Positions 46,833 through 63,069 of a stretch of DNA of 64,000 bases are shown here, in pieces (position 1 is the stretch's first letter; every line of letters begins with the position of its first letter). This DNA comes from Pedococcus sp. 5OH_020. GTDB lineage: Bacteria; Actinomycetota; Actinomycetes; Actinomycetales; Dermatophilaceae. Below the pieces are notes generated by a model. That model searched no databases. It saw only the letters and a list, made by a program, of their open reading frames with translations, and was not told where the DNA came from. The position numbers and the translations under genes were made by a program. The stretch lies in contig NZ_JAPYZV010000002.1 in NCBI RefSeq assembly GCF_027812955.1, positions 124,001 to 188,000 on the forward strand, in the 5' to 3' direction.

Positions 46833-46904
46833 GGGCCTCTAGCTCAACGGCAGAGCTGCGGACTTTTAATCCGTAGGTTGTCGGTTCGAATCCGACGGGG
46901 CCCA
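46833..46904 (+). tRNA. tRNA-Lys (anticodon TTT)
   Basis: A full cloverleaf can be drawn. The acceptor stem GGGCCTC pairs with GGGGCCC (one T-G pair), the D stem is GCTC/GAGC with a short 7-nt loop, the anticodon stem is GCGGA/TCCGT with loop CTTTTAA (anticodon TTT), the T stem is GTCGG/CCGAC with TTCGAAT, and the discriminator is A. No CCA is encoded. It marks the left edge of the accessory region, a typical integration target. Confidence 0.92.
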
Positions 46905-47039
46905 CTCATGTTTCTGCAGGTCAGAGCGCGACGGCGCCATGGAGCAGGGCCGGAAGCGCGCTAGCCAGGGGAGCGTGGTAACCGTTTGGTAACCCGCATA
47001 CCGGCAACAACACTCTTGCCGAAGGGGGCCGCGACGAGA

Positions 47040-47092
47040 GACTCCGATTGATAATCGGAAGGTCGGCAGTTCGACCCCGCCCCTGGCCACCA
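47040..47092 (+). pseudogene. 3' fragment of a tRNA gene (anticodon GAT, Ile-like)
   Basis: The 3' two-thirds of a tRNA: anticodon stem TCCGA/TCGGA with loop TTGATAA (anticodon GAT), variable loop, T arm GGCAG/CCGCC with TTCGACC (one A-C mismatch), the 3' acceptor strand CCTGGCC, discriminator A and encoded CCA. No matching 5' acceptor or D arm precedes it. It looks like a tRNA end left by integration or deletion. Confidence 0.6.
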
Positions 47093-47097
47093 CCCGG

Positions 47098-47130
47098 AGC
47101 CGCAGGTCGCAACAACGCTGGTCTGCGGCT
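47098..47130 (+). terminator. Hairpin after the tRNA fragment
   Basis: AGCCGCAG pairs with CTGCGGCT (8 bp, 17-nt loop) and is followed by TTTG. It is placed where a tRNA terminator would be. Confidence 0.4.
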
Positions 47131-47426
47131 TTGTGCATCCAGAAGTCCCGTCGAGCGGCCGGCTGAATACCGTGACTCACCCTTCCAGAATGCCGCGTGG
47201 TTATACGCGGAGGGCGGGAGCCTGCCGACGAGCAGGTCCAGGTCCTCCCAGCTCAGAGTGACCGAGTCGGTGACAGTGGTGAGCAGGGCTCGCAGCGGTC
47301 TCCAGTCGGCCATGGGCAAGTCTGTCCCAGTTGTCCGACAGAACTCCGGAATACGGGCAAGAACCTCCACTACGCTCCGCCATACCCAGCAAGAACCGGT
47401 TTCGCTACCTGGAAGGCCACGTCGCC

Positions 47427-47627
47427 ATGCCCGAGCCTTGGCTGTCTGCCGACGACATCGCCGTCCACCTCGGCGTCACGAAGGACACGGTCTATTCGTG
47501 GATCTCCGACAAGGCGATGCCGGCCCACAAGGTGGGGCGCCTCTGGAAGTTCCAGGCGAGCGAGGTCGATGCCTGGGTCCGGAGCGGAGGCGCCGCGGTC
47601 GTCGATGACGCACACCCGCCGGGCTGA
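47427..47627 (+). CDS. Excisionase-family MerR-like helix-turn-helix protein leading the BREX operon
   Basis: Protein of 66 aa with the excisionase (Xis/HTH_17) winged-helix pattern: WLSADDIAVHLGVTKDTVYS forms the HTH, and WISDKAMPAHKVGRLWKFQA the wing, with the family's K-x-G-R-L-W-K-F signature. Such proteins bind DNA as monomers or in arrays. It is 79 bases upstream of brxA in the same direction, with a palindrome between. Likely a transcriptional regulator of the defence operon rather than a recombination factor; similar genes precede other defence loci. A longer in-frame start at 47331 is possible. Confidence 0.8.
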   Translation: MPEPWLSADDIAVHLGVTKDTVYSWISDKAMPAHKVGRLWKFQASEVDAWVRSGGAAVVDDAHPPG

Positions 47628-47658
47628 TGAGCTCCGTCCGGCGGTTCTGTCGGACGGC

Positions 47659-47670
47659 CAGGATATCCTG
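47659..47670. promoter_or_regulatory. 12-bp palindrome upstream of brxA
   Basis: CAGGATATCCTG is a perfect palindrome, 37 bases before the brxA ATG and 31 after the helix-turn-helix gene stop. It is the only strong dyad in the gap. It is a candidate operator for the upstream regulator. A Shine-Dalgarno AGGGGAGG follows at 47690-47697. Confidence 0.5.
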
Positions 47671-47706
47671 ATCAACTTTGTTCAAGGCAGAGGGGAGGCA
47701 CACACC

Positions 47707-48294
47707 ATGACCGCAGCCGCGCGCTATGCGCTGTCGTTCACCAGCGGTGCCCTTCTTGTGCGTGAAGCCCTGGTGGCCGCACCGCTCTACCTGAGAGTCC
47801 AGGACTGGGCGAAGGTCCGTGAACTGATCGAGGAGGACAACCTCCTCCAAGCCCGCACGCGCTCGTCGGGCTTCCGGCTCGCCCGTGAGGTCGCTCAGCG
47901 GCTTTCCGTGCTCACTGATGGCGAGCTCGAACTGCTCCTCGACGCCACGCCGACCGAGCGTGGCTACCTGATGTGGGCCGCCGCCTGCCGCCGTTACGAC
48001 CTCATCGGCGAGTTCGCCGAAGAGGTTGTACGCGAGCGGTACCTCGTTCTGGCCCAAGCGCTCGGCCACGACGACTTCGACAGTTTCATCCGGGGCAAGG
48101 CGCTCTGGCATGAAGAAGTGGCCAACCTAAAGGACACGACCTTGCGCAAGCTCCGCTCCACCGTCTTCCGCATGCTTATGGAGGCGGGCCTGATCGCGGA
48201 CGACGGCCGCCTCAATCAGGCCGTCCTGTCCGCGCGGCTCAAGGACGCCCTGTCCGACGACCTCCACTTCTTTCCGACAGGCGGCACCGCATGA
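47707..48294 (+). CDS. brxA: BREX protein BrxA (DUF1819)
   Basis: Small helical BREX protein of 195 aa. BrxA folds like the RNA-binding antitermination protein NusB and is part of type 1 BREX phage defence. Family features: RYALSFTSGALLVREALVAA at the start, the RTRSSGFRLAREVAQRLSVL segment, RGYLMWAAACRRYDLIGEFA and LRKLRSTVFRMLMEAGLI near the end. ATG 47707 has a strong Shine-Dalgarno; the longer in-frame reading from 47197 crosses the regulator gene. Overlaps brxB by 4 bases (ATGA). Confidence 0.9.
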   Translation: MTAAARYALSFTSGALLVREALVAAPLYLRVQDWAKVRELIEEDNLLQARTRSSGFRLAREVAQRLSVLTDGELELLLDATPTERGYLMWAAACRRYDLIGEFAEEVVRERYLVLAQALGHDDFDSFIRGKALWHEEVANLKDTTLRKLRSTVFRMLMEAGLIADDGRLNQAVLSARLKDALSDDLHFFPTGGTA

Positions 48295-48896
48295 CGAGTG
48301 CCGCCGATCTCCACAAGCAGGAGGAGCACCTGTTCGCTGTCCTCAGCGGGAAGCGCTTCCTCCGGATGGAGGGCCTGAGCAACGAGGTCCCGTTCTTCAT
48401 CTACCCCTACCCACCAGAGGCGTCACTCGCGGTGGCGCAGGTGAAGAAGCGCATCAAAAGCAAGCTCTCCACGAAGCACGGCATCACCGTGCGCGAGGTC
48501 AACCTCTACGACCTGGCCGTCGAGATCCTCAAGGAGCGCGGCGTCTGGGAGCGGATCCTCCAGGCGGAGCCAGACCTGGAGAAGGACGACTTTCGCGAGA
48601 TGCTCCAAGGGATGCTGGACCCGCAGCTCCACATCGCGCCGGCGATCCGCGCCAAGATCGAGGACGGCGAGTTCGACATCTTCTTCCTCTCCGGTATCGG
48701 TGAGGTCTTCCCGTACATCCGGTCCCACAACGTGCTCAACAACCTTCAGAGCGTCGTGACCGGCAAGCCCATGCTCATGTTCTTCCCCGGCCGCTATGAG
48801 CAGTCCGACACCCTCGGCTCGTCTCTCGTGCTCTTCGGGCGCTTGAAGGACGACCAGTACTACCGAGCCAAGAACATCTTGGAACAGGAAGCGTGA
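48291..48896 (+). CDS. brxB: BREX protein BrxB (DUF1788)
   Basis: Protein of 201 aa, DUF1788. The family start EEHLFAVLSGKRFLRMEGLS, NEVPFFIYPYPPEASLAVAQ, and the later DIFFLSGIGEVFPYIRSHNV, LNNLQSVVTGKPMLMFFPGR and YEQSDTLGSSLVLFGRLKDD are characteristic. The biochemical role is unclear, although it is required for defence in characterised type 1 systems. It is coupled to brxA by ATGA and is 4 bases before brxC. Confidence 0.92.
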   Translation: MTSAADLHKQEEHLFAVLSGKRFLRMEGLSNEVPFFIYPYPPEASLAVAQVKKRIKSKLSTKHGITVREVNLYDLAVEILKERGVWERILQAEPDLEKDDFREMLQGMLDPQLHIAPAIRAKIEDGEFDIFFLSGIGEVFPYIRSHNVLNNLQSVVTGKPMLMFFPGRYEQSDTLGSSLVLFGRLKDDQYYRAKNILEQEA

Positions 48897-48900
48897 CGCG

Positions 48901-51900
48901 ATGCAGCTGAACGAAATCTTCGCCAAGGACGTCCAGCGCCCGATCGAGGGCGTCATCAAGGCGGACGACGTCGCACACCTTGGCACCGAGGTTGAGGAGT
49001 ACGTCCTCACCAACGAAGCCGCCAAGGGCCTCGAGCTTCTTCTTGAGGCCTACACGAACTACACCAACGCCAACGGTGTCTGGATCTCGGGATTCTTCGG
49101 CTCCGGTAAGTCGCACCTGCTCAAGATGCTGGCGCACCTCCTCGGGGACGTCGAGGGTCAGGAGTTCGACCGTGCACAGGTCTCCGAGAGCTTCCGGTCC
49201 AAGGCGACGGGGGCATTCCTGCCCGCCCTCCTGACCAAGGCTGAGCGCATCCCAGCAACGAGCCTCCTGTTCAACATCGACCAGAAGGCAACGCTGATCA
49301 CCAAGGACCAGACCGATGCCTTGCTCAAGGTTTTCGTAAAGGTTTTCGACGAGAGCCGGGGCTACTACGGCAACCAGGGACATGTCGCGCGCTTTGAGCG
49401 CGACCTCGATACGCGGGGCCAGTACGAGGCGTTCAAGGAGGCGTTCGAGCGCATCGCTGGCATTCCGTGGTCGCAGGGTCGCGAGCAAAGTGCCCTGGAG
49501 GGCGCGAACATCGACGCCGCCTTCGCTGAGGTCAACGGCGAGGCGGCTACCGGCATCATCAAGCAGTACCAGGCGTCGTATGCCGTCTCGATTGAAGACT
49601 TCGCCGACGGGGTCAAGGCGTGGCTCGACAAGCAGCCTCACGGCTACCGCCTCAATTTCTACGTCGACGAGGTCGGCCAGTTCATCGGCTCCAACACCCA
49701 CCTAATGCTGAACCTCCAGACCATCGCGGAGAGCCTCAACACGAAGTGCGGCGGGCGCGCCTGGGTGATGGTCACCTCGCAGGAGGACATGGACAAGGTC
49801 GTCGGCGACCGCACCCGGCAGCAGGGAAACGACTTCTCCAAGATCCAGGCGCGCTTCAAGACCCGCGTAAAGCTCACCAGCGCGGACGTCGAGGAAGTCA
49901 TCCGGAAGCGACTGCTCGATAAGAACAGCAAAGGTCAGACCGCGCTCGAGGGGATCTACGCCGTCCAGTCGGCCAACTTCAAGACGCTTTTCGACTTCGT
50001 CGATGGCGCGAAGACCTACCGCAACTTCACCGACGAGAGCCACTTCGTTGGCACTTACCCCTTTGTCAGCTACCAGTTCCCGCTGTTTCAGGCGGCGATC
50101 GAGGGCATCTCTGACCACAACGTCTTCGAGGGACGCAACAGCTCGGTCGGTGAGCGGTCGATGCTCGGTGTCGTCCAGCAGGTTGCCAAGGACATCGGCG
50201 ACGTTGAGGTCGGCACGTTGGCCACCTTCGACCACATGTTCGCCGGCATCCGAGCCTCGCTGAAGTCCGCGGCGCAGCGTTCCATCGACGTCGCGGAGCG
50301 CAACCTGGACAACCAGCTCGCCATCCGGCTCCTCAAGGCACTGTTCCTCGTGAAGTACGTCGACAGTTTTCAGGCCACCCCACGCAACCTGACTGTGCTC
50401 GTTTACGACCGGTTCGGCCTCGACTTGCCCGCGCTCGCCGAGGACGTCAAGGGGGCGCTTGCCGAGCTGGAGCGGCAGACATACATCCAGCGCAACGGCA
50501 ACGTCTACGAGTACCTGACCAACGAAGAGCAAGTGATCGAGGAGGAGATCAAGAACGTCGACATCGACGCCTCCGAGGTCAGCGCCCAGCTCTTCAAGAT
50601 CCTGTCCGGCGACGTGGTCAAGACGAACAGGATCCGGTACGCCAAGAACGGTCAGGACTTCCCGTTCGGCTTTAAGCTCGATGACCAGGTCCACGGCCCC
50701 CAGCGCGAACTCTCGGTCCACTTCATCACCCCGGAGTACCCGTACGAGGCGGCGCAGATCCGGATGCATAGCGCGGGCAAGGACGAACTCCGGGTCATCC
50801 TCGACCCGGACGATCGTGTGCTTTCGGATCTTCGTCTGCTGCTGAAGACCGACAAGTACACCAAGCGGAAGCGGATCTCTTCGCTCTCAGCGATTGAGGA
50901 GCAGATCCTTCAGTCGAAGGCCACGCTGAATCGCGAGCGTGAGAAGCAACTGGTGCAGCGGATCCGGAGCGCGGTGGGCAAGGCCTCTCTAGTCATCAAC
51001 GCGGCCGATGTTCCCGCGTCCTCGCAGGATGCAGTCGGCCGTGTGACCGAGGGGTTCCAGGAACTCATCAGTCGCAGCTACACCCAACTCAGGTTGCTGG
51101 GTGGCGTCACCTACACCGAGCAGCAGGTGGCGGGTGCTGCCAGTCCGGACAGCGGCCTGTTCGACGCCGACGCGCTGCTCAAGACCAGCCAGCCCGCCGA
51201 GGAGGTCTTGTCGACAATCCTTCGCAAGGACGGTCAGGGCGAGCAGGTGACGATGAAGGCCATCGTCGACACCTTCCAGGCGAAGCCCTACGGCTGGGAT
51301 CTCGGGTCGATCGAGGTCATCGTGGCTTCGCTGATCGGTGCATCGAAGATCACCGTGACAGTCGATGGCAACGTCCTCAAGCGCAGCGAGGTCGCAAACG
51401 CGCTACGCAACACACAGAAGCACGGTCACGAGATCCTCGCGCCGCAGAAGACGTTCGATGAGCGCAAGGTCGCCAACTTCCGCAAGTTTTGCACCGACTT
51501 CTTCGACGAGGGCAACGCGCCGAAGGACCCGTTGGAGCTCGCCCGCCACGGGGCAGACAAGCTGAGAGGCAAGCTCGATGAGCTGAAGGCGACAATCAGT
51601 GGTTCGAAGTACCCGTTCGTCGAGCAGCTCGGCGCGCCCATCGCGCTCCTGGAACAGGTCATGGGCAAGCCCGACCACTGGTACCTCACTGGCTTCGACC
51701 TCGGTGACGACCTGCTGGAAGCCAAGGAGAACCTGATCGACCCCATCCAGTCGTTCCTGCACGGAGCGCAGAGGTCAATCTACGACGAGGCGGCGACACT
51801 CCTTTCGACGCACGGCAGCAACCTGAGCTACCTGCCGCCGGGCAGCGACGAGCCGATCAAGAGCGCTCTCGCGGACCCAAATGCGTTCCGGGGCAATAGG

Positions 51901-52365
51901 ATGGCCCAGCTCAAGCAGGCAACCGATCACCTTCGCAGCCAAATTGACGACATGGTTGCCACGAACCGAGCGGCGATTACAGCAGCCATCGAGGGGCGCA
52001 GGAACGAGCTGCTTGGCGGGACCTACTACGCCAACGCAACGCCAGAGGCGCAGCAGCGAGTGAGGCAACGCATCGACAAGACACTCTCCCGTGTCGCCAC
52101 CGAGAGCCAGGTTGCGCTCATCCTCCAGATCGGCGCGAACTTCGAGGCGAGTGACTACCCAAGCCTGCTGGACCTGCTCGCTGCCTCGCCCATGGAGCCG
52201 GACCCCGAGCCCACACCCCAGAAGCAGACGGTGTCCGTGAAGACGATCGCAGTTTCGGGCACTTCAGGCATTCTCGAGTCCGAGGCGGACGTCGACAAGT
52301 ACCTCGCCGCTCTCCGTGGCGCGCTCATCGAGACCCTCAACGACGGAAAGCGAATCACCCTCTGA
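48901..52365 (+). CDS. brxC: BREX protein BrxC, large P-loop ATPase
   Basis: Protein of 1154 aa, the normal length for BrxC. The Walker A motif is at about residues 64 to 75 (GFFGSGKSHLLKML). A Walker B-like strand is RLNFYVDEVGQFIG near 245, and AWVMVTSQEDMDKVVGDRTR follows as the sensor region. The C-terminal half is helical with a coiled-coil character (DKYTKRKRISSLSAIEEQIL). BrxC is an AAA-like ATPase of the ORC/Cdc6-type, thought to assemble with PglX and PglZ on DNA. It starts 4 bases after brxB; the stop overlaps pglX as TGATG. Confidence 0.94.
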   Translation: MQLNEIFAKDVQRPIEGVIKADDVAHLGTEVEEYVLTNEAAKGLELLLEAYTNYTNANGVWISGFFGSGKSHLLKMLAHLLGDVEGQEFDRAQVSESFRSKATGAFLPALLTKAERIPATSLLFNIDQKATLITKDQTDALLKVFVKVFDESRGYYGNQGHVARFERDLDTRGQYEAFKEAFERIAGIPWSQGREQSALEGANIDAAFAEVNGEAATGIIKQYQASYAVSIEDFADGVKAWLDKQPHGYRLNFYVDEVGQFIGSNTHLMLNLQTIAESLNTKCGGRAWVMVTSQEDMDKVVGDRTRQQGNDFSKIQARFKTRVKLTSADVEEVIRKRLLDKNSKGQTALEGIYAVQSANFKTLFDFVDGAKTYRNFTDESHFVGTYPFVSYQFPLFQAAIEGISDHNVFEGRNSSVGERSMLGVVQQVAKDIGDVEVGTLATFDHMFAGIRASLKSAAQRSIDVAERNLDNQLAIRLLKALFLVKYVDSFQATPRNLTVLVYDRFGLDLPALAEDVKGALAELERQTYIQRNGNVYEYLTNEEQVIEEEIKNVDIDASEVSAQLFKILSGDVVKTNRIRYAKNGQDFPFGFKLDDQVHGPQRELSVHFITPEYPYEAAQIRMHSAGKDELRVILDPDDRVLSDLRLLLKTDKYTKRKRISSLSAIEEQILQSKATLNREREKQLVQRIRSAVGKASLVINAADVPASSQDAVGRVTEGFQELISRSYTQLRLLGGVTYTEQQVAGAASPDSGLFDADALLKTSQPAEEVLSTILRKDGQGEQVTMKAIVDTFQAKPYGWDLGSIEVIVASLIGASKITVTVDGNVLKRSEVANALRNTQKHGHEILAPQKTFDERKVANFRKFCTDFFDEGNAPKDPLELARHGADKLRGKLDELKATISGSKYPFVEQLGAPIALLEQVMGKPDHWYLTGFDLGDDLLEAKENLIDPIQSFLHGAQRSIYDEAATLLSTHGSNLSYLPPGSDEPIKSALADPNAFRGNRMAQLKQATDHLRSQIDDMVATNRAAITAAIEGRRNELLGGTYYANATPEAQQRVRQRIDKTLSRVATESQVALILQIGANFEASDYPSLLDLLAASPMEPDPEPTPQKQTVSVKTIAVSGTSGILESEADVDKYLAALRGALIETLNDGKRITL

Positions 52366-55300
52366 TGGAAACCGCTCGGCTGAAGAACTTCGCGACCTGG
52401 GCTCGCAAGGAACTCATCCGCGAGGTCACCGCGCGCATCGCCGCGGTGCTGGCGCCCGGATCGTCAGAGCGAGTGGAGCAGGCGAAGGCGGTTGCCGCCT
52501 TGGAGAAGGCAGTCACGGCTGCCGGCGGCGGAGACAAGGGCCGCGCTGCGGTGGCGGACAAAGTCGCCTACACCTGGTTCAACCGGATCATCGCGCTCCG
52601 CTTCATGGACGCCAACGGCTACACCGGGATCGGCGTTGTCTCGCCACAGGCAGCAGTGGTGGTGGGCCAGCCCGAGATCCTAGCCGAGGCAAAGCGCGGT
52701 GTCATCGACGCCCCCGTTGTCAGGGACGCGACGCGCGGGGCCGTTGCCGGCTTGCTGGACGGGACCCGTGCGAGTGGTGATCCACAAGGCGAGGCTTACG
52801 CGCTGCTCTTGGAGGCGTACTGCAACCATTGGCACAAGGCCATGCCATTCATGTTCGAACGCGAGGGTGACTTCACCGAGCTGCTTGTCCCAGCGAACCT
52901 GCTCGCTGACGACTCAGTGCTCAACCGGTCCGTCAAGGTGCTGAGCGAGGACGTCTGCAAGGACGTCGAGGTCATCGGCTGGCTCTACCAGTTCTATGTC
53001 TCGGACCGGAAGGACGAGGTCTTCGCTGGGTTCAAGAAGAACAAGAAGGCCGGCGCCGACGAGCTCCCGGCCGCCACCCAACTCTTCACTCCACATTGGA
53101 TCGTCCGCTACCTCGTCGAGAACTCCCTAGGCCGACTTTGGATGCTCAACCGCCCGAATTCGGGCTTGGTCTCGCAGATGGAGTACTACATCGCCCCGGT
53201 CCAAGACGAGACCGACTTCCTCAAGATCACGAGGCCCGAAGAGCTGAGGGTCATCGACCCCGCTTGCGGGTCGGGCCACATGCTGACCTACGCCTTCGAC
53301 CTGCTCTTCGCGATCTACGAAGAGGAGGGCTACAGCCCCGCGGAGATCCCGAGCCTGATTCTTGCCAACAACCTGTACGGCACTGAGATCGATCCGCGCG
53401 CGGGGGCGCTTGCCGCATTTGCGCTCACGATGAAGGCCGCCGCCAAGCGCAAGCTCTTCCTCAAAAACGCCGCCGGGCCGAACGTCTGCGTGATCGAGCC
53501 GATCTCCTTTGGCCCCGACGAACTCGCCTTCCTGGTCACCAAGGACGGTGACAAGCACGCCGAGGAGGCGTTCTGGAACCAGTTCGCCGAGGCAGACACG
53601 CTAGGCGCTCTCATCGGCCCGGACGGCGAACTATGTTCTCGCCTAGCGCGTCATCTTGAGTCCATGCGTGGCGCGCAGGACCTCATAACTACGGTCACGC
53701 TTGGGTCAGCTGAGCGAGTGATCGACCAAGCTACATACCTTACACGTCGCTACTCAGTCTTGGTCGCGAATCCGCCATACATGGGAGCCGGAAATGTGAA
53801 CAGTGGGGTCTCCCAAGAACTAAAGCGGCGCTTCGCTGGCTTTCATGGGGATCTGTTTTCCAGTTTCATCGCACGGTCGGCGACTCTTGTCATGCAGGGC
53901 GGGCGCGTCGGGATGATGACCCCCAATGTGTGGCTGTACATCGCAACGCAGGTGTCGGTGCGTAGGCTGATGATGGGGAAGTTCCCGCTTCGGACTCTGG
54001 TTGAGTTGCCACTGGGCGGCTTCAAGGGAGCAACGGTCCAGGTCTGCGCGTTTGTCTGTGGCGTCGGGACGGCCGCTCGCAACGTCGATTTCGTCCGGTT
54101 GGCGAAGGAGCCGGGTAATGAGGAATTGCTTAGAGGCCTGCTGGCCCAAGCCCTGCGAAATCGAGATAATGATTGCCGATACTTCGAGCGCGATCTGACG
54201 CAATTTGATCATCTGCCGAACAATGCATTCGCCTACTGGTTGACGGAGGGAATGCTCCGCGCCTTCAGGAAGGGCCGTACCGTCGCTGAAATTGCGGAGC
54301 CTCGCGTCGGGCTACAGACCAACGACAACGGGCGGTTCATTCGGTACTGGCACGAGGTGTCCGCAGAGAAGATTGGTCGGGGGCTGTCGCGTCCCGAAGC
54401 AGCCGCCTCTTCGTTCAAATGGTTCCCATACAACAAGGGTGGCGACTACAGGAAGTGGTACGGGAATCAGGACTTCGTCGTCAACTGGGAACGCGACGGC
54501 GCGGAGATCATCGAATTAGCCGCAGCCAAGTACGGTAGCGCTACCCGAACAGTGAAGAACCTCAGGTACTACTTCGAGCCTTCAGTTTCCTGGTCTAAGA
54601 TCGGGACTGGGATGCCAGCGTTCCGCTACTTTCCCAAGGGGTTCATCTTCGATCACGCTGGAACATCTGCGTTTAGTAGTGCGAGCGAACTCGTGAAGTT
54701 GGCCGGAATATGTAACTCCAACGTCGCACGTCAGATGCTCGCAGCGACGTCTCCGACTCTCAACCTCGAGGTTGGAACGTTAGCGCAACTTCCCGTCGTG
54801 GATCTGTCAGCACGGAGTTCGGAGATTGTCAAAGACCTCATTGAGCTTCACCGTGACGACTGGAATCGATCCGAAACTGCTTCCGACTTTTCTCGTCTTG
54901 ATCTGCTCTGCGCCGGCGAGAAGTCGGTCGCACTAGCCGTCGCTGACGCACTCAAGTGCGGCGAATCGTGTGCGGAGCATGCACGCACACTCGAGATCGA
55001 GCTCAACGCCGAAGTAGCCCGCCTCTACGGGATCGATGCTGAGGTGGAATCCGATGTCCCGCTCAACCGCGTGACTCTTGATGGGAATCCGGCATTCAAA
55101 TACGGCATCGGGGTCAGTCCTGCGGACGCGACGCGCCGGTTTGGGGAGGACCGCGTCCTTGACCTCGTCTCATATGCAGTCGGCTGCATGTTCGGTCGCT
55201 TCAGCCTCGACCAAGCGGGCTTGATCCTCGCTGATGAGGGCGGGACGGTGCAGGACTACTTGGGGAAGGTTCCCTCGCCAACATTCATGCCGGATGTGGA

Positions 55301-55844
55301 CAATGTCATCCCAATCATGGACGGTGACTGGTTCGAGGACGACATCGTCGAGCGGTTCCGCAAGTTCCTGCGCGCCGCGTTCGGTGAGCAGCACTTTGAG
55401 GAGAATCTGCGCTTCGCTACCGAGTCGCTCGGCGTCAAGAACCTTCGCGACTACTTCGTAAAGTCGTTCTACAAGGACCATGTGCAGCGATACAAGAAGC
55501 GTCCGATCTACTGGCTCTTCTCAAGCCCGAAGGGCTCATTCAACGCCCTGATCTATATGCACCGGTACACGCCATCGACCGTTTCGACCGTGCTCAATGA
55601 GTACCTTCGCGAGTTCCAGGCCAAGCTCAAGGCGAGCCTTGAAAACGCCGAACGTTCGAGTAATGCGAAGGAAGCCGATGGGCTCCGCAAGATCCTGCTG
55701 GAGCTCGATGAGTATGAGCACGACGTGCTCTACCCCCTGGCCTCCCGGAACGTCGCCATCGATCTCGACCACGGTGTGAAGGTCAACTATCCGAAGTTCG
55801 GCAGCGCTCTCAAGAACATTGTGGGCTTGGAGGCGACTTCATGA
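52365..55844 (+). CDS. pglX: BREX adenine-specific DNA methyltransferase PglX
   Basis: N6-adenine methyltransferase of 1159 aa that marks host DNA at a non-palindromic BREX site and takes part in excluding phage. SAM motif I is VIDPACGSGHMLTYAFDLLF at about 296; the catalytic NPPY is VLVANPPYMGAGN at about 469. From about 53.6 to 55.2 kb (residues about 420 to 960) codon use shifts to A/T-rich, rarer codons, matching the target-recognition region, and returns to operon average at the C-terminal part (KRPIYWLFSSPKGSFNALIY). Length matches type 1 PglX. Overlaps brxC by one base and pglZ by four. Confidence 0.95.
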   Translation: METARLKNFATWARKELIREVTARIAAVLAPGSSERVEQAKAVAALEKAVTAAGGGDKGRAAVADKVAYTWFNRIIALRFMDANGYTGIGVVSPQAAVVVGQPEILAEAKRGVIDAPVVRDATRGAVAGLLDGTRASGDPQGEAYALLLEAYCNHWHKAMPFMFEREGDFTELLVPANLLADDSVLNRSVKVLSEDVCKDVEVIGWLYQFYVSDRKDEVFAGFKKNKKAGADELPAATQLFTPHWIVRYLVENSLGRLWMLNRPNSGLVSQMEYYIAPVQDETDFLKITRPEELRVIDPACGSGHMLTYAFDLLFAIYEEEGYSPAEIPSLILANNLYGTEIDPRAGALAAFALTMKAAAKRKLFLKNAAGPNVCVIEPISFGPDELAFLVTKDGDKHAEEAFWNQFAEADTLGALIGPDGELCSRLARHLESMRGAQDLITTVTLGSAERVIDQATYLTRRYSVLVANPPYMGAGNVNSGVSQELKRRFAGFHGDLFSSFIARSATLVMQGGRVGMMTPNVWLYIATQVSVRRLMMGKFPLRTLVELPLGGFKGATVQVCAFVCGVGTAARNVDFVRLAKEPGNEELLRGLLAQALRNRDNDCRYFERDLTQFDHLPNNAFAYWLTEGMLRAFRKGRTVAEIAEPRVGLQTNDNGRFIRYWHEVSAEKIGRGLSRPEAAASSFKWFPYNKGGDYRKWYGNQDFVVNWERDGAEIIELAAAKYGSATRTVKNLRYYFEPSVSWSKIGTGMPAFRYFPKGFIFDHAGTSAFSSASELVKLAGICNSNVARQMLAATSPTLNLEVGTLAQLPVVDLSARSSEIVKDLIELHRDDWNRSETASDFSRLDLLCAGEKSVALAVADALKCGESCAEHARTLEIELNAEVARLYGIDAEVESDVPLNRVTLDGNPAFKYGIGVSPADATRRFGEDRVLDLVSYAVGCMFGRFSLDQAGLILADEGGTVQDYLGKVPSPTFMPDVDNVIPIMDGDWFEDDIVERFRKFLRAAFGEQHFEENLRFATESLGVKNLRDYFVKSFYKDHVQRYKKRPIYWLFSSPKGSFNALIYMHRYTPSTVSTVLNEYLREFQAKLKASLENAERSSNAKEADGLRKILLELDEYEHDVLYPLASRNVAIDLDHGVKVNYPKFGSALKNIVGLEATS

Positions 55845-58339
55845 GCGAAGTATCGGCTGTCCGTCCGCACCTGGAGCGCCGATTCGCGGACCAACGAGTC
55901 GTGTTCTGGCACGACCCTCTAGGTCAGTACGCCGCCGACCTCGACGGCCTCGACTTGGCGGGCGTCACGACCCTGCGTGTCGCCAATGACGAGTACGGCA
56001 TCAAGCACCGGTTGCTCCAGAAGCAGCCTGACGACAAGTTCCTGGTCTACCGCACCGGTCAGCCACCCGTCGGCACCCGCAACTGGCTCCTCGATCTCGA
56101 GCTGGCCTACGGCGTATTCACCGCCGACCGAAGCTCGCTTGTGTCGCAGGACCTCGGGCTGAGGGCAGACGGCATCGACGAAGTCGTGCAGGCTCACGAG
56201 AAGTTCTTCAACGCGAGCAAGCGCGTCCAGAGCCTCAAGGCACTGTTGACACCTGACGATGACGCAGCCCGGCTTCGAGCCAAGATGTCCGCCGTTGTGC
56301 TCGGTCAGAAGGAGCACAGTCTTCTTGAGATCACCCGGACACTGTTCATCGAAAACGGCAAGGGCGGGCGCACCAAGTACGACGCGCTCGTCGACTATGG
56401 CGTGGAGGATTTCTACTGGCGAGGCGTCGCGTCGATCTATGGCTACGAGGCGACCTCACCGGGCATTGACGACTTCATTCTCTGGATCTTCCGCAAGGCC
56501 ATCGATGGCTTTAGGTCCGACCGCCCCGGCGGACTCCAGAACATCCAGCTGGACTTTGCGAGCTTCCGCAACGACCGGCGCAGCCAGCAGGCACTCGCGA
56601 TCCTGGCGAGGCGGGCGTCCGCCGACCTCGACTACAAGGCAAGTATCGAAGAGGCCGGATTCCGCGAGCTGGTAGCCGTCGACCTGTTCGAGGAGACCGA
56701 TCGCAAGATCATCGCGGACCTCGCGCGGGCTGTCACGGAACAGGCGGTGACGGCCCGTGAGGTAGCCGAAGTGGTCCGTGCCCGCCAGAGCAGCGTATGG
56801 ATCGACGGCTATCGCCCGCTCTATACGGCCATCGCAGCGGCAGCAGACCTGTTGTCGGAGTTGGGCACGATCGACTTCACGTTCTCGACGTTCGACGAGG
56901 CGTTGGAGCGTTACCGCAGCGAGTGGTTCCGCATCGACCAGCTCTACCGCCAGTTCACCTACGCCCGCCGAACCTTCGAGGGACCTCACCCACTCGACTC
57001 GCTGCGCGAGCAGGTCGAGAAGCGCTACACCAACAAGTTCGTGTACGAGCTCGGCAACGCCTGGCAAAAGCAGGTAGACCAAGCCGAAACCTGGCGCTCC
57101 GCCACGGTCAGGTCTCAGAGATCGTTCTATGGCGACTACGTCGAGCAGCTGGTCCGCGAGGACAAGAAGGCTGTCGTCATCGTCTCCGACGCGCTCCGCT
57201 ACGAGGTCGCCGACGAGTTGCGCTCGCGCATCCGGCAGGAGGACCGATTCGATGCAGAACTCGAGGCTGTTCTGGGGGTGCTGCCCAGCTACACCCAGTT
57301 GGGGATGGCCGCCCTCTTGCCGCACCGGACGCTCAAGCATTCGCCGGACGGCAAGACTGTCCTCGCTGACGACCAGCCGACCAACGGGACCGCATTCCGC
57401 AAGAAGATCCTGGAGACGGTCGGCGGGACGGCGATCCAGGCCGAGGACTTCAAGGCGCTAAGCCCGGAAGAGCGGCGTGAGCTCTTCAAGAACAACCGCG
57501 TCTTGTACGTCTACCACGACGTCATTGACGCCACCGGTGACAAGCAGGGCACCGAGCGCCGCGTGTTCGAGGCGGCTGAGCAGGCGCTGAGCGAGCTGGT
57601 CGACCTGGTGAAGAAGGCGGCGAACGCGAACGCGACCAACATCTTCGTGACCGCCGACCATGGCTTCCTGTTCCAAGACGACGAGCTGCCACAGCAGTTC
57701 TTCCTGTCTGAGGCGCCCCACGGAGACAAGATCCTGGTCAAGAACAAGCGCTACGTCCTTGGTCACGGACTCAAGCTCGACTACGCGTTCACCACGTTCA
57801 GTGGAGTCCAGCTCGAACTCGACAGCGACATCGAAGTGCAGATCCCCAAGTCGATCCACCGACTCCGCCTGCCCGGCGGGGGAACACGATTCGTGCACGG
57901 GGGAGCGACCTTGCAGGAGGTCGTCGTCCCGGTGCTCGCGGTCAACAAGAAGCGCAAGAGCGACACCCGGTTGGTCAACGTCAAGGTGCTGCCCGACACC
58001 GACAAGATCACCACCGGGCAGCTTGTTGTGAAGTTGTTCCAGTCCGAACCGGTGAGCGACAAGGTCCAGGCGCGCGTGCTGCGAGCTGGCCTCTACGTTG
58101 GGGAGACCTTGATCTCCAACGATCCTCAGCCGGAGCTGACCTTTGACTCCGCTTCGGGCGAGCAGCGTGACCGGTACCAGAGCATCCAGCTCCTGCTGAA
58201 CAAGGATGCCAACGACTACAACAATCGCGCCGTCGAGTTCCGGCTCGAAGAGCGCATCCCCAACACGAACCAGTGGCGCGTCTACGAGAAGGCGATCTAC
58301 ACCCTCAAGCGCTCCTTCACCTCGGACTTCGACTTCTAG
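55841..58339 (+). CDS. pglZ: BREX phosphatase-like protein PglZ (type A)
   Basis: Protein of 832 aa in the alkaline phosphatase superfamily. The metal-binding signatures are KAVVIVSDALRYEVADELRS (Asp near 450) and TNIFVTADHGFLFQDDELPQ (Asp-His near 606), with a third part GGTRFVHGGATLQEVVVPVL. The N-terminal 400 residues are the PglZ-specific helical domain. Reported activity of the family is divalent-metal-dependent nuclease/phosphatase chemistry. ATGA overlap with pglX and TAG stop 11 bases before brxL keep it inside one operon. Confidence 0.94.
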   Translation: MSEVSAVRPHLERRFADQRVVFWHDPLGQYAADLDGLDLAGVTTLRVANDEYGIKHRLLQKQPDDKFLVYRTGQPPVGTRNWLLDLELAYGVFTADRSSLVSQDLGLRADGIDEVVQAHEKFFNASKRVQSLKALLTPDDDAARLRAKMSAVVLGQKEHSLLEITRTLFIENGKGGRTKYDALVDYGVEDFYWRGVASIYGYEATSPGIDDFILWIFRKAIDGFRSDRPGGLQNIQLDFASFRNDRRSQQALAILARRASADLDYKASIEEAGFRELVAVDLFEETDRKIIADLARAVTEQAVTAREVAEVVRARQSSVWIDGYRPLYTAIAAAADLLSELGTIDFTFSTFDEALERYRSEWFRIDQLYRQFTYARRTFEGPHPLDSLREQVEKRYTNKFVYELGNAWQKQVDQAETWRSATVRSQRSFYGDYVEQLVREDKKAVVIVSDALRYEVADELRSRIRQEDRFDAELEAVLGVLPSYTQLGMAALLPHRTLKHSPDGKTVLADDQPTNGTAFRKKILETVGGTAIQAEDFKALSPEERRELFKNNRVLYVYHDVIDATGDKQGTERRVFEAAEQALSELVDLVKKAANANATNIFVTADHGFLFQDDELPQQFFLSEAPHGDKILVKNKRYVLGHGLKLDYAFTTFSGVQLELDSDIEVQIPKSIHRLRLPGGGTRFVHGGATLQEVVVPVLAVNKKRKSDTRLVNVKVLPDTDKITTGQLVVKLFQSEPVSDKVQARVLRAGLYVGETLISNDPQPELTFDSASGEQRDRYQSIQLLLNKDANDYNNRAVEFRLEERIPNTNQWRVYEKAIYTLKRSFTSDFDF

Positions 58340-58350
58340 GGCGGGCTGAC

Positions 58351-60516
58351 ATGACTGAAGACACCGATCTCCATGTGATCGATGACGACTTCCCCGACGA
58401 CCTCACAGCGGAGCAGACCGAGGACCAGACCCCTGAACAGTCCGAACTCGACAAGAAGATCAACCAGCACTTCGCCGGCGTCGTGGTTCGCAAGGATCTG
58501 GTCAAGGCGGTCAAGGGCAACGCCATCGTCCCGTCGTACGTCCTCGAGTACCTCCTTGGTCAGTACGCCGCGTCGGACGACGAGGCCACGATCCAGGCGG
58601 GCATCGGTTCGGTGCGCCAAATTCTGGCCGACCACTACGTCCACCGGAACCAGTCGGAGCTCGTGAAGTCGACCATCCGCGAGCGCGGCCGGTACAAGAT
58701 CATCGACAAGGTCACGGTCACCCTCAACGACAAGGAAGACCGATACGAGGCCGAGTTCTCCAACCTCGGAATCAAGGGCGTCATCGTCGAAGCGGCCACC
58801 GTCAATGCCCACCCCAAGCTCCTGGTCGGCGGCGTCTGGTGCATCTGCGACATCGACTACTTCCACTTCGACGATGCACGTGTCGTTCCGTGGCAACTCG
58901 GCTCACTCAAGCCGATCCAGCTGTCCAACTTCGACTTCGACGGCTACACAACTGCGAGGCGCGAGTTCACCACCGACGAGTGGATCGAGGTGCTGATCCA
59001 GTCAATCGGCTTCAACCCCAAGCTGTTCGGCCGGCGCGCCAAGCTCATCCAGCTCGTGCGGCTGATCCCCTTCGTCGAACGCAACTACAACCTGGTCGAG
59101 CTCGGCCCCAAGGGAACGGGCAAGTCGCACATCTTCTCGGAGTTCTCTCCGCACGGCATGCTGATCTCCGGCGGAGAGGTCACCGTCCCCAAGCTCTTCG
59201 TCAACAACTCCAACGGCCGCATCGGCCTGGTCGGCTACTGGGATGTCGTGGCCTTCGACGAGTTCGCGGGGAAGAAGAAGCGCGCTGACAAGGCGCTCGT
59301 CGACATCATGAAGAACTACATGGCGAACAAGTCGTTCTCGCGTGGTGTGGAGACGCTGGGTGCCGAGGCGTCGATGGTCTTCGTAGGCAACACGTCTCAC
59401 AACGTGCCGTACATGCTCAAGCACTCCGACCTGTTTAATGAGCTGCCCGAGAGCTACCACGACTCGGCCTATCTCGACCGTTTGCACTTCTACATCCCAG
59501 GATGGGAAGTCGACACCATCCGCGGGGAGATGTTCTCGGAGGGCTATGGCTTCGTCGTCGACTACATCGCCGAGGTGCTCAAGTCGATGCGAAACGCTGA
59601 CTACTCAGATCGCTATCAGCAGCACTTCACTCTGGGCTCCGACATCTCCACTCGCGACCGCGACGGCATCCACAAGACGTTCTCCGGCTTGATGAAGATC
59701 CTGCACCCGCACGGCGGCGCGACGAAGGAGGACATCGCCGAGATCCTCGAGTTCGCCATCGAGGGACGCAAGCGTGTGAAGGACCAGATCCTCCGCATCG
59801 ACACCACGATGGCCGACGTCAGGTTCGGCTACCTCGACAAGGCCGGCGACTGGCACGCAGTCACGACCTTGGAGGAAGACGAGTACCCGGCGTACTACTA
59901 CAAGAGCCGTCCCGACCATGGCGACGGGGACACGGCGGGCGCGAAGGCACCTGGCGGCGTCGAGGTCGCGGACGCGGTCCTCGGCAAGGACGCCGCAAGG
60001 ACCGAACCACTCTTCGAGGGCCATCGCGAGCTCCAGGAAAACCAACGCGGCGTCTCCTACGAAACCCTCCTGCTGCCGTATCTCGCCGGGGCCTCCGAGA
60101 TCACGATCGTCGATCCGTACATCCGCCAGTTCCATCAAGCTCGCAACCTCATGGAGCTGATCGAGGCACTTGCCCTCGTGAAGGACCCGGCGGATGAACT
60201 GAAGGTCTTCCTCGTGACGAGCGAGAACACCGACGGCCCCGAGAAGCTGCAGAAGCAGATGGAGTTTCTGCTTCGCGTCAAGCAGGCTGCTGCGGTCGCC
60301 GGGATCACGCTCGACGTGAAGTTCGATGGCACGATCCACGACCGCTCGATCGTCGCCAACTCCGGCTGGCGCATCAATCTCGGGCGGGGCCTAGACATCT
60401 TTCAGTACGTCGCGAACGACGCGTTCGACCTCGCGGTGAAGCTCCAGCAGTACCGCCAGGTCAAGGCCTTCGGCGTAAGCTACATCAGGGAGACAGCGGG
60501 CAGCGAAGTGGGCTAG
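58351..60516 (+). CDS. brxL: BREX AAA+ Lon-like protein BrxL with C-terminal MIT_C/PLD-like domain
   Basis: AAA+ ATPase of 721 aa that forms DNA-binding rings in type 1 BREX. N-terminal part INQHFAGVVVRKDLVKAVKG and AIVPSYVLEYLLGQYAASDD. Walker A is near 250 (VELGPKGTGKSHIFSEFSPH), Walker B-like GYWDVVAFDEFAGKKKRADK near 300, then sensor VFVGNTSHNVPYMLKHSDLF. The segment from about 567 (GVSYETLLLPYLAGASEITI ... TIHDRSIVANSGWRINLGRG, LDIFQYV) resembles the MITD1 C-terminal phospholipase-D-like fold. I could not locate a Lon Ser-Lys dyad. ATG 58351 was chosen over an open frame into pglZ. Confidence 0.93.
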   Translation: MTEDTDLHVIDDDFPDDLTAEQTEDQTPEQSELDKKINQHFAGVVVRKDLVKAVKGNAIVPSYVLEYLLGQYAASDDEATIQAGIGSVRQILADHYVHRNQSELVKSTIRERGRYKIIDKVTVTLNDKEDRYEAEFSNLGIKGVIVEAATVNAHPKLLVGGVWCICDIDYFHFDDARVVPWQLGSLKPIQLSNFDFDGYTTARREFTTDEWIEVLIQSIGFNPKLFGRRAKLIQLVRLIPFVERNYNLVELGPKGTGKSHIFSEFSPHGMLISGGEVTVPKLFVNNSNGRIGLVGYWDVVAFDEFAGKKKRADKALVDIMKNYMANKSFSRGVETLGAEASMVFVGNTSHNVPYMLKHSDLFNELPESYHDSAYLDRLHFYIPGWEVDTIRGEMFSEGYGFVVDYIAEVLKSMRNADYSDRYQQHFTLGSDISTRDRDGIHKTFSGLMKILHPHGGATKEDIAEILEFAIEGRKRVKDQILRIDTTMADVRFGYLDKAGDWHAVTTLEEDEYPAYYYKSRPDHGDGDTAGAKAPGGVEVADAVLGKDAARTEPLFEGHRELQENQRGVSYETLLLPYLAGASEITIVDPYIRQFHQARNLMELIEALALVKDPADELKVFLVTSENTDGPEKLQKQMEFLLRVKQAAAVAGITLDVKFDGTIHDRSIVANSGWRINLGRGLDIFQYVANDAFDLAVKLQQYRQVKAFGVSYIRETAGSEVG

Positions 60517-60699: not shown

Positions 60700-61068
60700 T
60701 CACGCCGCCTGAGTGGCGGGCGTGGTCATGATGGGCTCATATTCCATCGGGGTCAACCGGCCGAGAGGGTCCTGGCGACGTCGTCGGTGATATGTCCGTT
60801 CGACCCAGGCCACGATCGCGATCCGCAGGTCCTCACGGGTGGTCCAGGGTTGCCGGTTGAGGACGTTCTTCAACGTCAAGGTCGTGCCGCAGGCCGAGTA
60901 CGAGGCCCTTTTGAAGCAGGCTGAAGACCGACTCCATCGCTGCGTTGTCGCCCGCGGCGCCGACGCGGCCCATAGAACCCACTTCACCAGGTCGTCGTGT
61001 CGGCGGACCGACCTTCTTGCCCCTGCCGCGCTTCTTCCCGAAGGCCGACGTCCGAGCAGATCCGCCAC
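60700..61068 (-). pseudogene. IS3-family transposase OrfB remnant (integrase core 3' part)
   Basis: The end of the rve domain is readable: LNRQPWTTREDLRIAIVAWV, ERTYHRRRRQDPLGRLTPME, YEPIMTTPATQAA, which includes the terminal catalytic Glu region and the RRR-x3-LGxLTPxE signature. A preceding piece GAAGDNAAMESVFSLLQKG is in another frame (around 60960), so at least one frameshift separates them. The DDE front half is lost. Confidence 0.75.
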
Positions 61069-61244
61069 GCGGTCCGATCAGCCATCTACTGCCCTCCGTG
61101 ACGGGCTTCATTGGCGAGGATTCTGTGGCCGAACTCGGAGTCGTCCCTATGGGCGTCGAACAGGGCGTTGGCGCGATACGCCTGCTTGAGCGGCGTCGGC
61201 GACCGAGCCGGCCAGCCAGCGGTAGAAGGGCTGGCGGGCGATCT

Positions 61245-61649
61245 TCAGCACCCGGCACCCTCACCGTCGCGGATACCGTCTTCGGCAAGGACTTGGACGA
61301 GCGGGTAGCTCATGTTTCCGGCAGATGCGTCTGCGAAAAGTAGCCGCAGCCCCACGCAGGACCTCAACCTCTTGCTGCAAGGTCCTATCCGCCGCTCCGC
61401 CTCCCGCAGCTCAGCCGAGTGCACGGCCGTCGGCCCGTCGCGGTTGCCGTCCTCGACCTCGGCCTTCTTCATCCACGAGTACAGGGTCGTGAAGCGGATC
61501 CCGTAGTCCGCCGCAATCTCATCGAGGCCGACACCCGGCTCACGGCTACGGGCAAGCCGACAACGTGCTCGCGAAACTCCCTGGGATGCGGCTTCGACAC
61601 GGTGGCATCCTTCCAGCCCAACCATCGGGTTAGGCAGATCGGTTGTCAC
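61245..61649 (-). pseudogene. IS3-family transposase OrfA remnant
   Basis: Helix-turn-helix part of the transposase: GLDEIAADYGIRFTTLYSWM then KKAEVEDGNRDGP. Both flanks are out of frame with it (the start near 61600 reads SRARCRLARSREPGV, where a second frame would give the family's RxRAV pattern). The leucine-zipper end RRIGPCSKRLRSCVGLRLLF is corrupted. Non-functional. Confidence 0.7.
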
Positions 61650-61698
61650 CTATCCGTGCAGCAGACCCCTCACCCCTAACGCTAGCCCTGGTCGCTGG

Positions 61699-62835: not shown

Positions 62836-63069
62836 GCCCTCACCTCCAGTCCATCGATGTATCAACTACTTCTGGCGTGCATTTGACAGCTACAAATCCG
62901 GAACTTCACGCCACACAGTTGCTCCTTCGCCTTTCCGGCCTCTCGAAACGGCGACCGGTGGTGGCACACGGCGACATCGGTTGGCATGTCGGCAGCCGTA
63001 GTAGTTACTCATTGCACCAGTCAGCCCTGACAGGCTCGGTCGGGCGCGTATTCATGATCGACCTAGGCT
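62836..63069. other. Intergenic stretch upstream of the integrase gene
   Basis: About 230 bases with lower GC than the host and no supported gene. It presumably holds the integrase promoter and possibly the attachment site. I see no copy here of the tRNA-Lys 3' end. Confidence 0.4.

What the first reader, a model, noticed from the sequence alone, without database searches (positions are those of the whole stretch)
47427..60516. Complete type 1 BREX phage-defence operon in an actinobacterium, next to a tRNA
Six genes in the canonical order brxA-brxB-brxC-pglX-pglZ-brxL, all on one strand. Five are joined by 4-base or 1-base overlaps or gaps of 4 to 11 bases, and all have intact motifs and full lengths. 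In actinobacteria the better known Pgl system (type 2) has a different gene set, so an intact type 1 operon here suggests horizontal gain. It lies between a tRNA-Lys gene and an integrase, and is flanked by a decayed IS element.
Basis: partly seen in the sequence, partly recalled or inferred. Interest (0 to 1): 0.75.

Follow-up and report, generated by a model that had tools for sequence, protein, structure and literature searches.

The report
BREX island with damage-type promoter
This actinobacterium carries a complete anti-phage system of a known kind (type 1 BREX) on a 32-kb island at a tRNA gene, and comparison with relatives suggests that a small dedicated regulator and a DNA-damage-type promoter control it, which remains to be tested.

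Summary
In detail: all six proteins match BREX-1 models and the gene joints are as described. One correction: brxA starts at 47707; 47427 starts a separate 66-aa HTH gene.

The operon lies in a 32-kb element at tRNA-Lys with a perfect 44-bp repeat at both ends. One genus relative has a near-empty site; 9 of 10 lack BREX. Type 1 in an actinobacterium is not itself a surprise: a BrxC search gave 58 loci, 56 with actinobacterial titles. The nearest operons found are in Nocardioides and Aeromicrobium. BrxL is the known HKD-tailed variant; the middle of PglX is swapped.

What looks new is the control region.
(i) The HTH gene precedes brxA in 37 of 56 loci. Tandem 10-bp repeats lie upstream of it and mostly fade where the gene is broken or missing.
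(ii) A published PafBC (ssDNA-sensing, DNA-damage) promoter motif sits before brxA: >=9/12 in 31 of 56 sequences (1.3 expected) and 8 of 10 further loci, against 0 of 8 chosen non-actinobacterial operons.

The window's own PafBC site is a weaker 9/12 match, and one actinobacterial group lacks the motif. Regulation is inferred, not tested.

The parts
46833..46905 (+). tRNA-Lys (TTT), integration site
   Evidence: ARAGORN; Rfam RF00005 70.4 bits
46862..46905 (+). attL core: 44 bp repeated 100% at G000:C22:202913-202956, about 32 kb downstream
47351..47368 (+). proposed operator repeat pair, upstream of the -10 of the HTH gene
   Evidence: by eye from the sequence; coordinates; repeat class
47371..47376 (+). 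TACGCT, proposed -10 element of the HTH gene promoter
   Evidence: sequence; inference
47382..47399 (+). proposed operator repeat pair (leave-one-out score 17.0), downstream of the -10
47427..47627 (+). 66-aa HTH_17 protein, proposed dedicated BREX regulator
   Evidence: Pfam HTH_17 51.9 bits (cut-off 27); PADLOC mad1 7.4e-12; profile hit within 400 bp upstream of brxA in 37 of 56 loci
47647..47669 (+). PafBC-type promoter CTGTCGGAC-N8-TATCCT, 9 of 12 positions of the published consensus
   Evidence: consensus in PMC5656591 passages
47707..48294 (+). brxA, 195 aa
   Evidence: PADLOC 6.1e-68; Pfam BrxA 1e-51
48291..48896 (+). brxB, 201 aa
   Evidence: PADLOC 4.2e-67; Pfam BrxB 1.1e-41
48901..52365 (+). 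brxC, 1154 aa
   Evidence: NF033441 1137.6 bits, cut-off 400
52365..55844 (+). pglX, 1159 aa; residues about 420-900 hypervariable
   Evidence: NF033452 1227.1 bits, cut-off 500; variable middle
55841..58339 (+). pglZ type A, 832 aa
   Evidence: TIGR02687 733.5 bits, cut-off 270.35
58351..60516 (+). brxL, 721 aa, with C-terminal MIT_C/PLD-like domain (HDR motif at residue 663)
   Evidence: TIGR02688 627.2 bits; MIT_C 1e-38; motif; MITD1 4a5z 2.1e-19
60700..61650 (-). decayed IS3-type transposase remnant
   Evidence: NF033516 partial 3.5e-07; HTH_Tnp_1 below its cut-off
61699..62865 (-). tyrosine integrase (Arm-DNA-bind_4 + Phage_integrase)
   Evidence: Pfam 2e-26

Best explanation
A complete type 1 BREX operon (BrxL-HKD variant) carried as cargo of a 32-kb defence island integrated at tRNA-Lys. 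The machinery should work as in other BREX-1 systems: PglX methylates host sites and unmethylated phage DNA is blocked (established for the family, not shown here). What I add is its control. The 66-aa wHTH protein encoded just upstream binds tandem 10-bp repeats around its own promoter and acts as a dedicated, probably repressing, regulator. The core operon has a second promoter of the PafBC type, so that single-stranded DNA made during infection or damage would raise brxA-brxL expression through the host's PafBC. Shown: the operon, the island, conservation of the HTH, of the repeats and of the PafBC-type box across relatives, and a PafBC-like WYL pair in the host genome. Inferred: that the protein binds the repeats, the sign of its effect, and that PafBC drives brxA.
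For: Operon. Island.
HTH: found by tblastn with the window's protein upstream of brxA in 38 loci. A profile trained on these hits within 400 bp upstream of brxA in 37 of 56 loci, once (L060) about 2.8 kb upstream, and nowhere else in the 58 loci at E 1e-3. In 396 phylum genomes it has 8 matches at 1e-12; 4 of the 8 lead BREX operons: the window's, a distant BREX-1 (G023, BrxC 49%) and two that look like BREX-3 (G137, G276).
Repeats: base matching at lag 10 counts 65 against 4.5 expected (maximum 15 in 100 shuffles) in 25 non-redundant intact upstreams; leave-one-out score mean 16.6 against -1.0 (sd 3.6) for shuffles; six broken-HTH loci score 5.5, -0.8, 9.8, 1.6, -3.2, -0.3; 17 HTH-less loci average 3.1 over 400 bp against 2.7 for shuffles.
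PafBC box: >=9/12 in 31 of 56 and >=10 in 23 of 56 sequences (window plus 55 loci; shuffle means 1.33 and 0.13, maxima 5 and 2 in 100); spacer 8 best of 4-13. Other ORF starts in the same loci: 4.6% and 0.74% of 1765. Further loci: >=9 in 8 of 10, >=10 in 7 of 10. Eight chosen non-actinobacterial BREX-1 operons: 0 of 8 reach 9. In the window's genome the motif TGTCRGTG-N8-TAnnnT occurs 11 times (0 for the reversed pattern); 5 of the 11 precede recA, uvrA, uvrB, sbcD and a RecB/AddB-like nuclease. Two adjacent WYL genes are present; one matches PafBC 6sj9 at 3.1e-58.
Against: The window's own PafBC site matches only 9 of 12, a score that 4.6% of other ORF starts reach, so it rests on orthology. 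25 of 56 upstreams fall below 9; the Arthrobacter-type group (L020-L024 and plasmid pAL1) and G023 lack the box although all of these but L020 have the HTH. A few sites scoring 9 lie elsewhere or lack most of the -10 (for example L011). 17 of 56 loci lack the HTH, among them L039, whose BrxC is 93% identical. One broken-HTH locus (L029, 9.8) keeps a repeat score above its intact relative L027 (7.8), and one HTH-less locus (L057) scores 13.2 over 400 bp. The repeat model was seeded with a consensus read by eye. The HTH matches no solved structure by sequence, and fold matches to RacA, Xis, RdfS and BldC are not significant (best E 0.026). No expression or binding data exist here.
Confidence: 0.6

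Rival explanations
1. An ordinary BREX-1 island with constitutive housekeeping promoters; the HTH is an excisionase-like passenger and the box is an ordinary sigma-A promoter.
For: HTH_17 is an excisionase-type domain (recalled) and Xis/RdfS are among the fold neighbours. The element has an integrase. 17 of 56 loci do without the HTH.
Against: The HTH travels with brxA rather than with the integrase: the window's integrase has only 25-31% matches, in 9 of 58 loci, and the HTH also leads two BREX-3-like operons. Fixed 10-bp repeats accompany it. The TGTCRGTG-N8-TAnnnT box leaves 11 bp between TTGTCR and the -10, too short for a -35/-10 pair, and spacer 8 is preferred.
Confidence: 0.25
2. The HTH is an activator (or recruits RNA polymerase) rather than a repressor of the BREX promoter.
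For: In several loci the repeats lie upstream of the presumed -10, near where a -35 would be (by eye). Loss of the HTH with retention of the PafBC-type box is compatible with a redundant activator.
Against: In the window and its nearest kin one repeat pair lies downstream of the presumed -10, where a bound protein would block transcription. BldC, a mechanistic analogue, is described as acting as a repressor of development (PMC5859096, passages).
Confidence: 0.3
3. The operon is a decayed or silent copy.
For: The neighbouring IS is decayed, and the island carries two integrases and a tRNA-Phe fragment, so it has been rearranged.
Against: All six frames are intact with conserved motifs and near-full-length profile matches. 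Operons elsewhere share 91-92% DNA identity from the end of pglX through brxL.
Confidence: 0.05

Closest known systems
Type 1 BREX (Goldfarb 2015, recalled, paper not held; PMC12839542, sections 14 and 19 and passages)
   Same: Gene set, order, PglZ type A, BREX-1 PglX, BrxL
   Different: Preceded by a 66-aa HTH gene and a PafBC-type promoter instead of the WYL repressor BrxR
BrxL-HKD variant of BREX-1 (PMC12839542, section 19)
   Same: C-terminal PLD-like domain with an H-x-R (HDR) motif, in the window and in 44 of 44 relatives examined
   Different: Nothing seen; the paper counts 1030 of 2913 type 1 taxa with BrxL
BrxR, the WYL-domain repressor of Gram-negative BREX (PMC9122589, PMC9122601, passages)
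   Same: Regulator gene immediately upstream of brxA
   Different: BrxR of E. fergusonii is a WYL protein of 295 aa; here the gene encodes a 66-aa wHTH protein with no sensor domain. Four of the 8 non-actinobacterial plasmid operons fetched have a WYL gene in that position
BldC of Streptomyces (PMC5859096, passages)
   Same: Small single-domain MerR-like wHTH; direct-repeat sites
   Different: No sequence match and only a weak fold match (E 0.22); the repeat here is AWACCSGGYN at 10 bp, BldC's is AATTXXXX(C)
PafBC / RecA-NDp promoters (PMC5656591, PMC11804915, passages)
   Same: tTGTCRgtg-8 nt-TannnT motif, upstream of DNA-repair genes in this genome
   Different: No link to BREX found in the searches run; the window site deviates at three lower-case positions
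MADS mad1 (PADLOC model)
   Same: The HTH matches the mad1 profile at 7.4e-12 over 56 of 60 positions
   Different: No other MADS gene was seen in the operon; probably shared HTH_17 ancestry

Membership tests
Type 1 BREX | brxA-brxB-brxC-pglX-pglZ-brxL, type-specific PglX and PglZ | tested here: met
Type 1 BREX | Intact ATPase and methyltransferase motifs | tested here: met
   (BrxC and BrxL Walker A; PglX DPACGSG and NPPY); PglZ active site not verified
Type 1 BREX | 6mA at a non-palindromic motif and phage restriction | not testable with these tools
   needs native DNA and plating
BrxL-HKD variant | HKD-type (H-x-R) C-terminal domain replacing the Lon-like domain | tested here: met
BrxR-regulated BREX | WYL regulator upstream of brxA | tested here: not met
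   the gene at 47427-47627 is HTH_17 only
BldC family | Single small wHTH fold related to BldC | tested here: inconclusive
   wHTH model, mean pLDDT 75; 6ama among Foldseek hits but E 0.22
BldC family | Head-to-tail binding to direct repeats | not testable with these tools
   repeats exist; binding not measured
PafBC-dependent promoters | tTGTCRgtg-N8-TannnT | tested here: inconclusive
   window site matches 9 of 12 scored positions, all upper-case ones included; strong across relatives
PafBC-dependent promoters | Loss of induction without PafBC | not testable with these tools
   needs a mutant
tRNA-integrated genomic island | Duplicated tRNA 3' end at both ends, integrase, absence in relatives | tested here: met

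The most novel reading that the evidence does not exclude
Actinobacterial BREX-1 is a damage-inducible immune system: ssDNA from infection activates the host's own PafBC to switch on the core operon, while a BREX-associated BldC-like repressor on tandem 10-bp repeats (a family also found at BREX-3) sets the basal level. This would replace the Gram-negative BrxR by tapping a host WYL sensor.
Probability: 0.5. Interest if true: 0.72.

Novelty: new variant of a known kind. Interest (0 to 1): 0.5.

Why it matters
How BREX is kept quiet and then raised is known, in the papers I saw, for BrxR systems of Gram-negative bacteria. If actinobacterial BREX is wired to the PafBC DNA-damage response, phage defence and DNA repair share one ssDNA sensor, which can be tested with pafBC mutants and reporter fusions. 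The HTH would also be a marker for finding BREX-1 and BREX-3 operons. One of the papers seen states that no WYL factor was known to regulate phage defence in Actinobacteria (PMC10693628, passages).

Tried and rejected
Rejected: that the 365-aa ORF at 47197 is BrxA (the profile match begins at residue 171). That type 1 in an actinobacterium is unusual in itself. That the inverted copy GTCCGACAGAAC / GTTCTGTCGGAC around the HTH gene is the conserved operator: by eye it is shared only with L038. That the right-flank gene 205598-207937 marks the empty site: its homologues are scattered in relatives, so the test was redone with the gene at 208522 and the tRNA-Glu-Asp-Phe cluster. That the tRNA-Phe fragment travels with BREX: it has no match at E 1e-3 in the 58 loci.

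Led nowhere: NCBIfam named neither of two ORFs taken around the first WYL match nor the ORF taken for the second, so a PDB sequence search was used: L137:1048-2037 matched PafBC, L137:75-1187, which is not a WYL protein, matched nothing; the second WYL protein was not identified separately. No solved relative of the HTH was found by sequence. Contexts of the HTH matches G137:C4 and G212 were fetched and read as ORF lists but no defence system was recognised (one G212 neighbour had no PADLOC hit); G370 was not fetched.
Full report
OBSERVATION. brxA starts at 47707, not 47427: the BrxA match begins at residue 171 of the long ORF, and 47427-47627 is a separate 66-aa HTH_17 gene. BREX-1-specific NCBIfam cut-offs are exceeded for PglX and PglZ (type A), and the BREX cut-offs for BrxC and one of two BrxL models. 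Motifs of BrxC, BrxL and PglX are intact. BrxL ends in a PLD-like MIT_C domain with an HDR motif, found in 44 of 44 relatives examined; this is the BrxL-HKD variant reported for 1030 of 2913 type 1 taxa with BrxL (PMC12839542, section 19 read).

THE ISLAND. G+C drops from about 0.70 to about 0.62 near 47 kb. The last 44 bp of tRNA-Lys recur at 100% at C22:202913-202956, about 32 kb downstream. In relative G006 the gene left of tRNA-Lys and the gene corresponding to 208522-209514 flank tRNA-Lys, with 0.7 kb after it; in the window's genome the 32-kb island plus about 5.6 kb of further sequence lie between. BrxC is absent in 9 of 10 genus relatives, and the one that has it, G009, has it on another contig than its tRNA-Lys. 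G009 equals Phycicoccus sp. Soil802 over 5096 bp, so the genus is taken to be that of Phycicoccus. Genes 26-35% identical to the window's integrase lie near tRNA-Lys in 5 of 10 genus relatives, and second partial tRNA-Lys copies lie downstream on the same contig, 4 to 131 kb away, in 5 of 10: a hot spot. The island also holds a type IV restriction protein, an Mrr-type gene, a KAP/PifA-like NTPase and a second integrase.

ORIGIN. A BrxC search, which finds close relatives of the query, returned 58 loci; 56 have actinobacterial titles and two are MAG contigs with other names. In evenly drawn samples BrxC occurs in 7 of 396 phylum genomes (E 1e-50) and 21 of 396 order genomes (E 1e-150), the window's own included. 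Of the eight loci compared by DNA, the closest are Nocardioides gansuensis (86% over 6.5 kb, 92% over 5.3 kb) and Aeromicrobium terrae (90% over 5.9 kb, 92% over 5.3 kb), while the same-genus copy is 80% over 5.1 kb. That supports transfer between families (family placement recalled). Between the two well-matched blocks lies a stretch inside pglX with almost no DNA match. Among 13 PglX proteins, 60-residue blocks from 421 to 900 average 25-47% pairwise identity, with 60% at 361-420 and 53% at 901-960, against 76-90% elsewhere. I read this as exchange of the specificity part.

THE HTH GENE. tblastn with the window's protein found it upstream of brxA in 38 loci. A profile trained on the open copies hits within 400 bp upstream of brxA in 37 of the 56 loci with brxA, once about 2.8 kb upstream (L060), and nowhere else in the 58 loci at E 1e-3; the hits are partly by construction, the lack of others is not. 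By eye I class 6 copies as broken or decayed (L007, L016, L029, L032, L033, L048); 17 loci lack it. In 396 phylum genomes 8 matches at 1e-12 fall in 7 genomes: two at BREX-1 (G000, G023), two at operons that look like BREX-3 (G276 with BrxF, G137 with a BrxC of that type and PglXI; pglZ was not looked for), one fused to a type II methyltransferase (G253), and three whose context I could not name or did not fetch. Another BREX-1 (G109, BrxC 47%) has no such HTH in the stretch fetched. The family is thus BREX-associated, not exclusive to it. A model (mean pLDDT 75) shows a winged HTH; Foldseek lists RacA, phage Xis, RdfS and BldC, none significant.

THE REPEATS. In 25 non-redundant intact sequences the 120 bp before the HTH gene show a strong 10-bp self-match: 65 against 4.5 expected and at most 15 in 100 shuffles, with weaker peaks at lags 5, 15, 20 and 30. 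This lag test does not depend on a chosen word. The unit is AWACCSGGYN, from a model seeded with a consensus read by eye. Leave-one-out scores average 16.6 against -1.0 (sd 3.6) for shuffles; the window scores 17.0; the lowest intact locus scores 5.8 (L041). Of six broken-HTH loci, five score 5.5 or less and L029 scores 9.8; its nearest intact type, L027, scores 7.8. The 17 HTH-less loci average 3.1 over 400 bp against 2.7 for shuffles, with L057 (13.2), L034 (7.8) and L055 (7.4) higher. An earlier word count (45 against 13.5) used words chosen after looking. BldC, a 68-residue protein, binds direct repeats head-to-tail (PMC5859096, passages): a mechanistic analogue only.

THE PafBC-TYPE PROMOTER. 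The published motif of LexA/RecA-independent damage promoters is tTGTCRgtg-8 nt-TannnT (PMC5656591, passages). I recalled it on reading the HTH-brxA gap and then tested it, so the first set is not blind. In 110 bp before brxA (window plus 55 loci) 31 of 56 reach 9 of 12 and 23 reach 10 (shuffle means 1.33 and 0.13, maxima 5 and 2 in 100); 7 are perfect, all from one group of similar operons; spacer 8 gives the most of spacers 4-13. After thinning similar upstreams, 17 of 40 reach 9 and 14 reach 10 (no shuffle was run on this subset). Upstreams of other ORFs of 150 aa or more in these loci, taken in six frames so that many are not real genes, reach 9 in 4.6% and 10 in 0.74% of 1765. In further genomes of the order (21 of 396 with BrxC) I dropped the window, five copies identical to loci already used and five with cut or short upstreams; of the remaining 10, 8 reach 9 and 7 reach 10. 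Two of the 10 are 92-95% similar to earlier loci, and one, G023, a miss, had been looked at before. Eight non-actinobacterial plasmid operons, chosen by me from 40 listed of 301 records, all score 8 or less; the Arthrobacter plasmid pAL1 scores 7. The motif with TGTCRGTG occurs 11 times in the window's genome (0 for the reversed pattern); 5 of the 11 precede uvrA, uvrB, recA, sbcD and a RecB/AddB-like nuclease, and the other 6 precede genes not recognised as repair genes. Two adjacent WYL genes are present, one matching PafBC 6sj9 at 3.1e-58. PafBC is activated by ssDNA (PMC11804915, passages). The window's own site, CTGTCGGAC-N8-TATCCT at 47647-47669, scores 9 and meets all upper-case positions: weak alone, supported by its position and orthologues.

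PRINT. Searches (listings, each capped at 5 to 25 papers of a longer list) and passages of PMC12839542, PMC9122589, PMC9122601, PMC10693628, PMC10482375 and PMC12458937 showed no mention of a BldC- or excisionase-like regulator or of a PafBC promoter for BREX. In PMC12839542 the words MerR and excisionase do not occur in the main text. The library holds only open papers and supplements were not read, so this is not proof of absence.

VERDICT. The finding as given is an ordinary new member of a known system in a textbook tRNA island. The control region is the part worth following: strong in comparison, untested in the cell, and only moderate for this window taken alone.

Noticed in passing
window 47043-47109; G000:C22:216087-216153: A 3' fragment of tRNA-Phe (93% over 67 bp to the intact tRNA-Phe region 45 kb downstream) lies between tRNA-Lys and the BREX module, perhaps the scar of another element.
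   Followed up: partly
L050, L051, L055, L057, L062 between PglX and PglZ: The PglX match stops near residue 842-854 and a tyrosine-recombinase-like match follows before pglZ, as expected for an invertible, phase-variable PglX.
   Followed up: no
L118 and L121 (G137, G276): The same HTH family leads operons that look like BREX type 3.
   Followed up: partly
G000:C22:193427-201408: The rest of the island carries a type IV restriction protein, an Mrr_cat gene, a nucleotidyltransferase and a KAP/PifA-like NTPase: a multi-system defence island.
   Followed up: partly
window 47331-47344 and 47644-47655: Inverted copies of GTTCTGTCGGAC flank the HTH gene; by eye seen only in the window and L038.
   Followed up: partly
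window 45233-46672: An ATP-dependent ligase D-like gene sits between the conserved left neighbour and tRNA-Lys but not at that place in G006.
   Followed up: no
L122:5245-6177(-): The HTH_17 domain is fused to the N-terminus of a type II DNA methyltransferase in G253.
   Followed up: no
L015, L045: Contigs titled Armatimonadetes and Solibacteraceae MAGs carry BrxC 77% and 74% identical to the window's: either wide transfer or mis-binned contigs.
   Followed up: no
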